A DNA stretch of 64,000 nucleotides. It comes from Bdellovibrionota bacterium (GTDB lineage Bacteria > Bdellovibrionota > Bdellovibrionia > Bdellovibrionales > JAEYZS01). The DNA lies in assembly GCA_040386775.1 (NCBI GenBank), contig JAZKEU010000009.1:113453-177452 (forward strand), in the 5' to 3' direction. Numbering within the stretch: position 1 is the stretch's first letter; every line of letters starts with the position of its first letter. The position numbers were made by a program, and so were the translations under genes. Under the pieces are notes generated by a model, which was given only the letters and a program-made list of their open reading frames with translations, did not search any database and had not been told where the DNA came from. Positions 3,612 through 42,488 of this stretch are shown in pieces.

Positions 3612-5168
3612 TTACAGTGGAATATTGCCGTGTTTTTTTCTTGGCATTGTTTCTTGTTTGTTTTTTAGCATTTCTAAAGACTGGATCAATCTCACTCTGG
3701 TCACTGAAGGTTCGATGACTTCATCAATATAACCAAGCTCCGCGGCTCTGTATGGATTTGCAAAAGTCTCTTGGTAATTATCTGTTAACTCTTTTCTAGT
3801 CTTTGTTGGATCTTTAGATTTTTTAATATCTTCTCTGAAAATAATGTTCACGGCACCTTCTGGACCCATCACCGCAATTTCTGCAGATGGGTAAGCCATA
3901 TTGATGTCTGAGCGTAAATGTTTAGACGCCATCACGCAGTAAGCGCCACCGTAAGCTTTTCTTGTGATCAGTGTGATCTTTGGAACTGTTGCTTCCGCAT
4001 AGGCATAAAGAAGTTTTGCTCCATGAGTGATAATTCCGTTCCACTCTTGATTTGTTCCTGGCAAGAATCCTGGAACGTCGACGAGAGTAATGATTGGAAT
4101 ATTGAAAGCATCACAAAATCTGATGAATCTCGCAGCTTTTTTAGAAGCTTCGATATCCAAACATCCAGCAAGAACTTGCGGTTGGTTGGCTACTATACCA
4201 ACGCTCTTACCATTGAGTCTTGAGAACCCAACGCAAATATTTTTAGCGTAGTGTTCATGAACCTCAAAGAAATAACCTTCATCCATTACAAGTTTAATTA
4301 GCTCTTTCATGTCGTAAGGTTTTTTAGAAGAATCCGGGATTAAGGTATTTAATTTTTCTTCAACTCTTGTTGGAGAATCTTTTGTGGGAATGATTGGCGA
4401 ATCATCCAAGTTGTTTGATGGAATAAAGCTTAAAAGTTCTCTGATCATCAAAAGACAGTGCTTATCGTTATCCGTTGCAAAGTGTGCAACGCCAGACTTG
4501 GAAGCGTGAGTCAATGCTCCGCCAAGTGCTTCTTTAGTTACATCTTCGTGAGTTACAGTTTTAATAACATCAGGGCCAGTCACAAACATATAGCTTGTGT
4601 CCTTCACCATAAATACGAAATCAGTAATTGAAGGTGAGTAAACCGCGCCACCAGCTGATGGTCCCATGATTGCAGAAATTTGTGGGATCACACCAGAGGC
4701 CATCGTGTTGTTTAAGAAAATATCAGCATATCCACCAAGAGCCTCAACGCCTTCTTGAATTCTTGCGCCACCCGAATCGTTGATCCCAATCATCGGAGCG
4801 CCATTCTTTAGAGCCATCTCTTGAATTTTGCAGATTTTGTTTGCTTGAGTTTGGGAAAGTGAACCACCGAACACCGTGAAGTCTTGAGAGTAAACATAAA
4901 CAAGTTTTCCGTTCACTCTGCCGTAGCCAGTGATAACACCATCCCCGAGAATCTTTTTATCGGCCATTCCAAAGTTTGTCGAACGATGTGTAACAAAACG
5001 ATCCATTTCAACAAAGCTTCCTGGATCTAAAAGAACATCAAGGCGCTCTCTAGCAGAAAGTCTTCCGCCTTCTTTTTGTTTCTTTAAGCGCTCTTCGCCG
5101 CCGCCCCTGTAGGCAATCTCATTTTTCTTTTCTAATTCAAGAATTTTGTCTTTCGTAGTTAATTCCAT
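3612..5168 (-). CDS. pccB: acyl-CoA carboxylase carboxyltransferase subunit (propionyl-CoA carboxylase beta)
   Basis: 518 residues, the normal length for PccB-type carboxyltransferases, with two crotonase-fold halves. The N-half holds [17 protein letters not shown] (131-147) and the oxyanion loop [11 protein letters not shown] (169-179). The C-half holds [14 protein letters not shown] and a second AYGGAYCVM oxyanion loop. It moves carboxyl from carboxybiotin to the acyl-CoA. The ATG at 5168 follows AAGAGG with a 5-base spacer. The 62-base gap to asnS contains a hairpin and a GCTGCAA-GAGG block that also occurs before tsf and groEL (separate entry). Substrate preference cannot be read from sequence alone; the mutase in the operon favours propionyl-CoA. 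Confidence 0.93.
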
Positions 5169-25532: not shown

Positions 25533-25620
25533 TCCCCACGTTGAATTACCGGATTAAATTCGAATTTCGAATATTATTTAGACTCTAAACGAAATAAATA
25601 AAACATGAATATGATTCTAA

Positions 25621-25702
25621 AAATGCAAATAGGATCTTTGCTTTAAGCGAAGATCCTATTTGGATGAAACTCCTAGGTCTTAGAAACCAAGGAGCAACAC
25701 GA
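25621..25702 (+). promoter_or_regulatory. structured leader of micropeptide element, copy 1
   Basis: ATGCAAATAGGA opens the leader. Hairpin 1 is a perfect 12-bp stem (25627-25638 with 25650-25661) capped by GCT-TTA-AGC. A TTGGATGAA linker follows. Hairpin 2 pairs CTCCT (25670-25674) with AGGAG (25690-25694), plus inner GGT/ACC, so the ribosome-binding site AAGGAG is in its 3' arm. A 7-codon upstream frame (25623-25646) starts at the leader ATG. The second copy at 42.3 kb keeps this layout with different paired bases. Confidence 0.65.
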
Positions 25703-25804
25703 ATGAAAACCTCTACACAGGTATTAATTCGTCAGATTTTGAGTTTTACTTTAATCGTTTTAAGAATTTTGTGGCTTTTGTTACAGATTTTGAATCAATT
25801 TTAG
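25703..25804 (+). CDS. 33-residue hydrophobic micropeptide, copy 1
   Basis: ATG at 25703 lies 8 bases after AAGGAG. The peptide starts MKTSTQVLIRQIL and ends LRILWLLLQILNQF, one likely membrane or amphipathic helix with Arg at 10 and 21 and Trp at 24. The second copy (42390-42488) also has Trp24 and an R-x-I-L motif in its first half. Small hydrophobic peptides behind a structured leader that hides the start site resemble type I toxins or leader peptides, but neither is shown. Confidence 0.55.
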   Translation: MKTSTQVLIRQILSFTLIVLRILWLLLQILNQF

Positions 25805-25909
25805 AAATTTAAAAGAGAAGTCCTAGCGTATTCAAAGACAAAGGATTGGGCTTAAACCCTAGACCACTGGTTGTTTTAAAAAAACGTGGGTCTTCGTCTT
25901 AAAGCACTA

Positions 25910-25990
25910 CTATCTTACAAGCGCTTGGAATACGAAAAAAAGAAGCACCGAAAAAATAAACATCATGGTTGCGCGAGCAGAGAAAATCAT
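25910..25990 (-). CDS. possible 26-residue membrane peptide downstream of hpt
   Basis: Starts 42 bases after the hpt stop, with AGGA eight bases before its ATG. The peptide is MIFSARATMMFIFSVLLFFV then FQALVR, one hydrophobic helix with basic ends. It could be translated from the hpt message. There is no comparative evidence, and 26 codons can be open by chance. Confidence 0.35.
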   Translation of the reverse strand: MIFSARATMMFIFSVLLFFVFQALVR

Positions 25991-42173: not shown

Positions 42174-42310
42174 TCCTCTATAATTCGGAATTTAGAAATC
42201 ATTTTTATTTTCACAAAGAGTTTGTTGGATTGCTTATTTTCGGATTTTGATTCGTTATTCGGACACAGTTCATTCTCATAAACAATCCATTGATTTATAC
42301 CTAGGCTCTT

Positions 42311-42389
42311 AAAATGCAAGAAGGAAACCTGCTTAGCAAGTTCCCTCCTTGGATGAACCTCATTTGTTCCACAAACAAAGGAGGTCCGG
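42311..42389 (+). promoter_or_regulatory. structured leader of micropeptide element, copy 2
   Basis: The leader ATG is at 42314 (ATGCAAGAAGGA). Hairpin 1 has nine of eleven pairs (42318-42328 with 42340-42350) with an inner TGC-TTA-GCA cap. TTGGATGAAC follows. Hairpin 2 pairs ACCTC (42357-42361) with GAGGT (42381-42385), with inner TTTGT/ACAAA, placing the ribosome-binding site in the 3' arm as in copy 1. CCTCCTT in hairpin 1 can alternatively pair with AAGGAGG. A 27-codon upstream frame runs into the micropeptide start. Confidence 0.65.
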
Positions 42390-42488
42390 ATGAATAAACG
42401 ACAAAAACAACTGTTGGTTATTCTTCGGCATATTTTAGGGATTATTAAATCTGTCCTTTGGATAGTTTTTATAATATTATTACTTTAA
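42390..42488 (+). CDS. 32-residue hydrophobic micropeptide, copy 2
   Basis: ATG 42390 follows AAAGGAGG. The peptide starts MNKRQKQLLVILRHILGI and ends VLWIVFIILLL, a basic head and one hydrophobic helix. It shares with copy 1 an R-(Q/H)-I-L unit, then (I/V)LW with Trp at residue 24. Its last three codons overlap the 3' end of pgeF on the other strand. Its function is unknown. Confidence 0.55.
   Translation: MNKRQKQLLVILRHILGIIKSVLWIVFIILLL

What the first reader, a model, noticed from the sequence alone, without database searches (positions are those of the whole stretch)
25621..25804. Leader-plus-micropeptide element, first of two copies
Seen directly: this block and the one at 42311-42488 share order and signature words. 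Each has ATGCAA..AGGA, a hairpin with a TTA loop, TTGGATGAA, a hairpin enclosing the AAGGAG site, then a 32-33 codon hydrophobic ORF with R-(Q/H)-I-L and LW at residue 24. The stems differ in bases but keep pairing: copy 1 uses CTCCT/AGGAG plus GGT/ACC, copy 2 uses ACCTC/GAGGT plus TTTGT/ACAAA. Such covariation argues for a selected RNA structure rather than a simple repeat. Hiding the ribosome-binding site ahead of a small membrane peptide is typical of type I toxins and of regulated leader peptides; which one, if either, is inference.
Basis: partly seen in the sequence, partly recalled or inferred. Interest (0 to 1): 0.82.

Follow-up and report, generated by a model that had tools for sequence, protein, structure and literature searches.

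The report
Bdellovibrio multi-copy toxin-like peptide genes
The finding is one copy of a previously uncatalogued family of tiny stand-alone genes found only in Bdellovibrio-type bacteria, each with a sigma54-type promoter, a hidden ribosome-binding site and a conserved 30-43 residue positively charged membrane-type peptide, built like an RNA-controlled (type I) toxin although toxicity and the antisense RNA are not yet shown.

Summary
The window holds 2 of 9 copies in this genome. A covariance model of the leader alone finds the element in 40 of 141 genomes of the order and, on inspection, in none of the 228 other genomes of the phylum; 68 members carry a peptide that the model did not contain. 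The peptide (30-43 aa, [IYF]RR[IF]L..., net charge about +6) is under purifying selection. Hairpin 1 covaries strongly, and the Shine-Dalgarno site is paired in every member tested. The conserved block starts at GG exactly 10 nt before GC (54/64): a sigma54 -24/-12 promoter, not a leader ORF. Its predicted start lies inside hairpin 1. On the minus strand only, hairpin 1 is followed by a U-rich tract, like the terminator of an antisense RNA. A structured 3' region closes the unit. The genes are stand-alone and multi-copy, and match nothing in Pfam, NCBIfam, PHROGs, PDB or Rfam. Best reading: a lineage-specific, sigma54-driven, type I-toxin-like gene family. Not shown: expression, toxicity, the antisense RNA and its promoter. 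Window copy 1 has a degenerate -24 element (GA). Copy 2 has a truncated peptide and lacks the 3' domain.

The parts
25612..25626 (+). sigma54-type -24/-12 promoter of copy 1 (TGATTC-TAAAAA-TGC); the family consensus is GG, here the -24 element is GA (degenerate). Predicted +1 about 25638
   Evidence: family logo: GG at -12/-11 relative to GC in 54/64 members; start position from geometry only
25626..25662 (.). hairpin 1 / inverted repeat that straddles the predicted start; terminator-like on the minus strand
   Evidence: covariation; U-rich tract on the minus strand only
25670..25694 (+). SD-sequestering hairpin, CTCCTAGGT...ACCAAGGAG
   Evidence: SD paired in 66/66 members, own arms pair better than swapped arms (38/10000 shuffles)
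25703..25804 (+). 33-codon ORF MKTSTQVLIRQILSFTLIVLRILWLLLQILNQF
   Evidence: conserved in 68 members with pN<pS; no family match
25805..25920 (+). 3' domain of copy 1 (diverged): TCCTAGCGTATTC...CAAAGGATTGGGCTTAAACCC; 3' limit approximate
   Evidence: alignment with the C13 and C12 copies and the family
42302..42317 (+). sigma54-type promoter of copy 2 (TAGGCTCTTAAAATGC, GG-N10-GC intact); predicted +1 about 42329
42316..42352 (.). hairpin 1 of copy 2
42357..42387 (+). SD hairpin of copy 2 (ACCTCATTTGT...ACAAACAAAGGAGGT)
42390..42488 (+). 32-codon ORF of copy 2, truncated relative to the C19 copy; the 3' domain is missing

Best explanation
This is one member of a multi-copy, Bdellovibrionales-specific family of stand-alone small genes that work like type I toxins. 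Shown by sequence: (1) a 30-43 residue basic, hydrophobic peptide kept by purifying selection; (2) an SD site hidden in a local hairpin; (3) a covarying inverted repeat upstream; (4) a conserved GG-N10-GC (sigma54 -24/-12) motif overlapping it; (5) a U-rich tract after the repeat on the minus strand only; (6) a structured 3' region; (7) monocistronic intergenic placement. Inferred: RNA polymerase with sigma54 and an enhancer-binding activator makes the mRNA on a stress or life-cycle signal; translation is held low by the SD hairpin; an antisense RNA made from the minus strand inside the element, ending at hairpin 1, covers the start region and represses it; when released, the peptide inserts in the inner membrane and slows or depolarises the cell. 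Because sigma54 transcripts would start inside hairpin 1, hairpin 1 would form mainly in the antisense (or read-through) RNA.
For: Leader-only model R1 finds 40/141 genomes of the order, and nearly every strong hit is followed by the peptide, which R1 did not contain. Peptide: 68 members, pN<pS in 21/22 pairs at 75-85% identity and 62/64 at 65-75%; median 36 aa, net charge +5.7, 18-aa hydropathy 2.2. Hairpin 1: 0/500 shuffles; own arms -20.0 vs swapped -11.1 kcal/mol, 0/5000. SD paired in 66/66 (mean 0.88 vs 0.65 with shuffled upstream). Promoter: GG at one exact position in 54/64, 0-7 at other positions, GG not part of R1; rpoN in 99/103 good genomes of the order; 11 sigma54 activators in the own genome. 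Minus-strand U tract: at least 8 T of 12 in 46/61 vs 13% of random T runs, plus strand at background; equally strong when the downstream gene runs the other way (8.4 vs 8.1), so it belongs to the element. 3' helix covariation in the Bdellovibrio class. Always intergenic; 29 convergent, 32 tandem, 3 divergent (P 3e-5). Patchy 0-9 copies per genome, with decayed copies, as in toxin families.
Against: No transcript, ribosome or toxicity data. No antisense promoter at a common position: best minus-strand sigma70 score 7.91 vs 7.77 shuffled. Long-range pairing of the SD with the 3' UTR, as in hok/aapA, is not supported (own vs swapped P 0.32). Hairpin 1 lies largely upstream of the predicted sigma54 start (10.3 of 13.9 pairs), which sits awkwardly with it being part of the sense mRNA. 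No conserved upstream activator site was seen. The finding copy itself has a degenerate -24 element, so it may be weak or silent.
Confidence: 0.5

Rival explanations
1. A sigma54-regulated small membrane peptide gene that is not a toxin-antitoxin locus: the peptide modulates a membrane process and there is no antisense RNA; hairpin 1 insulates the promoter.
For: Promoter motif and selected peptide hold without any antitoxin; no antisense promoter found.
Against: Many diverged paralogues, patchy presence and decay are more typical of toxins; the element's own minus-strand terminator signature is then unexplained.
Confidence: 0.25
2. The RNA starts upstream at or before the GG from a sigma70 promoter, and hairpin 1 is a 5' stabiliser or standby structure of the mRNA; GG-N10-GC is not sigma54.
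For: Strong covariation of hairpin 1 is most simply explained if it is in the mRNA; slight AT-richness and a weak -10-like peak just upstream of GG.
Against: Nothing is conserved upstream of GG; in several copies the neighbouring gene ends within 10 nt of the element; GG-N10-GC with Y-N-Y after GG matches the sigma54 consensus.
Confidence: 0.2
3. A cis-regulatory leader (attenuator or leader peptide) of the downstream gene.
For: SD hairpin and short ORF resemble leaders.
Against: Downstream gene on the same strand in only 18 of 64 copies; unrelated neighbours; the ATGCAA upstream frame is not selected (34/60 open vs 30 and 37 in other frames); no Rfam match.
Confidence: 0.03
4. A decaying mobile repeat without function.
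For: Scattered copies, some broken.
Against: Purifying selection on the peptide, covariation and a near-invariant promoter motif.
Confidence: 0.02

Closest known systems
Helicobacter pylori AapA/IsoA type I toxin-antitoxin
   Same: About 30-residue hydrophobic basic peptide, SD hidden in hairpins, several loci per genome (SD-sequestering hairpins: PMC6733600)
   Different: No sequence similarity known; here a sigma54-type promoter; no antisense promoter found; SD to 3' UTR pairing not supported here
Escherichia coli TisB/IstR-1 and ShoB/OhsC
   Same: Short amphipathic basic membrane peptides from structured, poorly translated mRNAs (PMC7708055)
   Different: LexA-controlled (tisB) or sigma70-type -35/-10 with proposed CpxR sites (shoB, PMC11264685), not sigma54; antitoxin RNAs proven; no Pfam match for this family
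hok/sok
   Same: Structured toxin mRNA with blocked translation; small membrane peptide
   Different: No coupled leader ORF; no supported 5'-3' pairing; no Hok_gef match
Sigma54 -24/-12 promoters (RpoN regulons)
   Same: GG-N10-GC with TGGYNY...TGCA; rpoN and 11 activators in the genome
   Different: Fused to a covarying inverted repeat spanning the start; an A-run where the sigma54 consensus has none

Membership tests
type I toxin-antitoxin | small (under about 60 aa) hydrophobic membrane peptide | tested here: met
   30-43 aa, 18-aa hydropathy 2.2, net charge +5.7; selected
type I toxin-antitoxin | antisense RNA antitoxin overlapping or adjacent | tested here: inconclusive
   Minus-strand terminator signature but no common antisense promoter; no RNA data
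type I toxin-antitoxin | peptide toxic on overexpression, relieved by the RNA | not testable with these tools
   needs bench work
type I toxin-antitoxin | structured mRNA with SD sequestration | tested here: met
   66/66 with SD pairing above 0.5. Frequent in the class, not strictly defining
known toxin families (Hok, Ldr, Fst, TisB and others in Pfam or NCBIfam) | match to the family profile | tested here: not met
   0 meaningful matches for 25 members
sigma54 promoter | GG-N10-GC -24/-12 element | tested here: met
   54/64 at one exact spacing; copy 1 in the window itself has GA
sigma54 promoter | rpoN-dependent start about 12 nt after GC | not testable with these tools
   rpoN and activators present
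cis-regulatory leader | conserved downstream gene in the same direction | tested here: not met
   18 of 64
known RNA family (Rfam) | match above gathering score | tested here: not met

The most novel reading that the evidence does not exclude
A new, lineage-restricted type I toxin-antitoxin class in predatory-type bacteria whose toxin gene is switched on by sigma54 and an activator rather than sigma70, and in which one covarying inverted repeat serves both as the toxin's start region and as the terminator of its antisense antitoxin, so that the two RNAs are physically interlocked.
Probability: 0.35. Interest if true: 0.8.

Novelty: new variant of a known kind. Interest (0 to 1): 0.62.

Why it matters
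Up to 9 copies per genome of a selected gene family appear in no protein or RNA family library held here, probably because the ORFs are too short to be annotated. The held papers searched give no type I toxin-antitoxin in Bdellovibrio and no sigma54-driven type I toxin. If confirmed, it would tie a membrane-peptide switch to sigma54 control in predatory bacteria and give a compact promoter-terminator overlap to test. It also gives a concrete set of loci for reannotation.

Tried and rejected
Leader ORF from ATGCAA and mok-like coupling: rejected, open frames at background. Hok-like pairing of the SD or the 5' end with the 3' UTR: not supported overall (one class P 0.03, not relied on). Common sigma70 antisense promoter: none. 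Plus-strand (read-through) terminator role of hairpin 1: T tract at background. The weighted T-tract score showed only a mild minus-strand excess (0.64 percentile); the T count is clearer. tRNA-like reading of the 3' hairpin (loops such as CTTAAAA): not pursued, no tRNA or Rfam support. HD100-sized genome G022 hit (L162) and the out-of-order hit in G158: false, no peptide. Viral contigs: two matches, both unrelated coding sequence. The regex for the 3' end missed most members, so the 3' limit is approximate.

Full report
Observation. The two blocks are in the sequence as described. Copy 1's leader folds far better than its shuffles (z -6.6); copy 2's alone does not (z -1.3). The case therefore rests on the wider family.

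Copies in the same genome. DNA, peptide and pattern searches, followed by the leader model, give nine copies in the 2.86 Mb genome G000: contigs C1, C7, C9 (the two in the window), C12, C13, C17, C19 and C24. The C13 and C12 peptides are 70-76% identical to copy 1. Copy 2 is close to C19 and C24, but its peptide is cut short and the 3' domain is gone. The C12 copy keeps the SD hairpin, peptide and 3' domain but has lost hairpin 1 and the promoter motif.

Relatives. A covariance model was built from 12 leaders (SD region included, peptide excluded). It matches 40 of 141 genomes of the order at E 0.01 or better. Some weak matches are false (for example L162 and L164). Nearly every strong match is followed directly by an ATG and a 30-43 codon ORF with the same core. 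In 228 genomes of the phylum outside the order there was one match at E 0.001, and it has no peptide. Named carriers are Bdellovibrio, Pseudobdellovibrio and an Oligoflexia MAG. True members come from at least 11 genera in four families of the order. If so, HD100 appears to have no copy and Tiberius one.

Peptide. In 68 members the consensus is M...[IYF]RR[IFV]L.I.K..L.[IL][IL]L[LV][IL]..I(L)K.L. Nonsynonymous change is below synonymous in 21 of 22 pairs at 75-85% identity and 62 of 64 at 65-75% (pairs are not independent). Length median 36, net charge +5.7, best 18-residue hydropathy 2.2. No match in Pfam, NCBIfam, PHROGs or PDB.

RNA or DNA structure. Hairpin 1 is supported by 185 cells with changes on both sides against 68 in shuffles (on a model-fitted alignment) and, independently of that fit, by own arms pairing at -20.0 against -11.1 kcal/mol when swapped. 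The SD hairpin shifts register between members, so an alignment consensus misses it, but the SD is paired in 66 of 66 members (0.88 vs 0.65 with shuffled upstream sequence) and own arms beat swapped arms (38 of 10000). The 3' region holds a covarying helix in the Bdellovibrio class, 5 of 10 pairs with changes on both sides, and a related but different hairpin (GGGACTTAAAATCCC) in the others.

Promoter. The block of conservation starts abruptly at GG, ten bases before the GC of ATGC, followed by Y-N-Y. GG is at that one place in 54 of 64 members and at 0-7 at the other 29 offsets tested; it was not in the model. This is the sigma54 -24/-12 signature (TGGCACG-N4-TTGCA, established knowledge). 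rpoN is in 99 of 103 good genomes of the order, so presence does not discriminate carriers from non-carriers; the own genome has 11 sigma54 activators. The predicted start lies inside hairpin 1, with 10.3 of 13.9 pairs reaching upstream of it. In window copy 1 the motif reads GA instead of GG.

Antisense signature. After hairpin 1 on the minus strand comes a tract such as TTTTGCATTTTT: 8.2 T of 12, at least 8 in 46 of 61, against 13% of random T runs; the plus side is at background (5.4 vs 5.7). The A-run that gives this tract lies where the sigma54 consensus has no preference. It is as strong where the downstream gene runs in the element's direction (8.4) as elsewhere (8.1), so it is not the terminator of a neighbour. 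This points to an antisense RNA made inside the element. Its promoter was not found.

Context. All copies tested are intergenic and stand-alone: 29 between convergent genes, 32 in tandem, 3 divergent. Neighbours differ from copy to copy. Tandem copies occur, and broken copies occur beside intact ones in sister genomes (L163 vs L156).

Mechanism and rivals. The anatomy (membrane peptide, hidden SD, element-internal antisense terminator, many patchy paralogues) works like a type I toxin locus, with sigma54 in place of the usual sigma70 control. Membership in type I toxin-antitoxin systems is not claimed: the antisense RNA is only inferred and toxicity is untested. The main rivals are a sigma54-controlled membrane peptide without antitoxin, and a sigma70 start upstream of hairpin 1.

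Novelty. No library family or held paper describes it. The literature search covers only the held open-access papers. I rate it a new variant of a known kind.

Noticed in passing
L010 (G000:C12:192250-200403), about 3985-4150: A copy that kept SD hairpin, peptide and 3' domain but lost hairpin 1 and the sigma54 motif.
   Followed up: partly
L119 (G032:C10), L133 and L145 (G017): Neighbouring copies of the element: three about 2 kb apart in G032, and tandem in G017, on C12 with a unit of 368 nt.
   Followed up: partly
3' domain, e.g. L078 about 2700-2760, L080: 3' hairpin with 7-nt loops (CTTAAAA, CTTTAAA, CTCAAAA, CTGAAAA) that look like anticodon loops; no tRNA or Rfam support.
   Followed up: no
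G000 whole genome: TGGCAY-N6-TGC occurs 52 times against 13 for the reversed control pattern, hinting at a sizeable sigma54 regulon; coding bias not excluded.
   Followed up: no
L163 vs L156: Same locus in two Bdellovibrio genomes: intact element in one, internal deletion running peptide into the 3' region in the other.
   Followed up: partly
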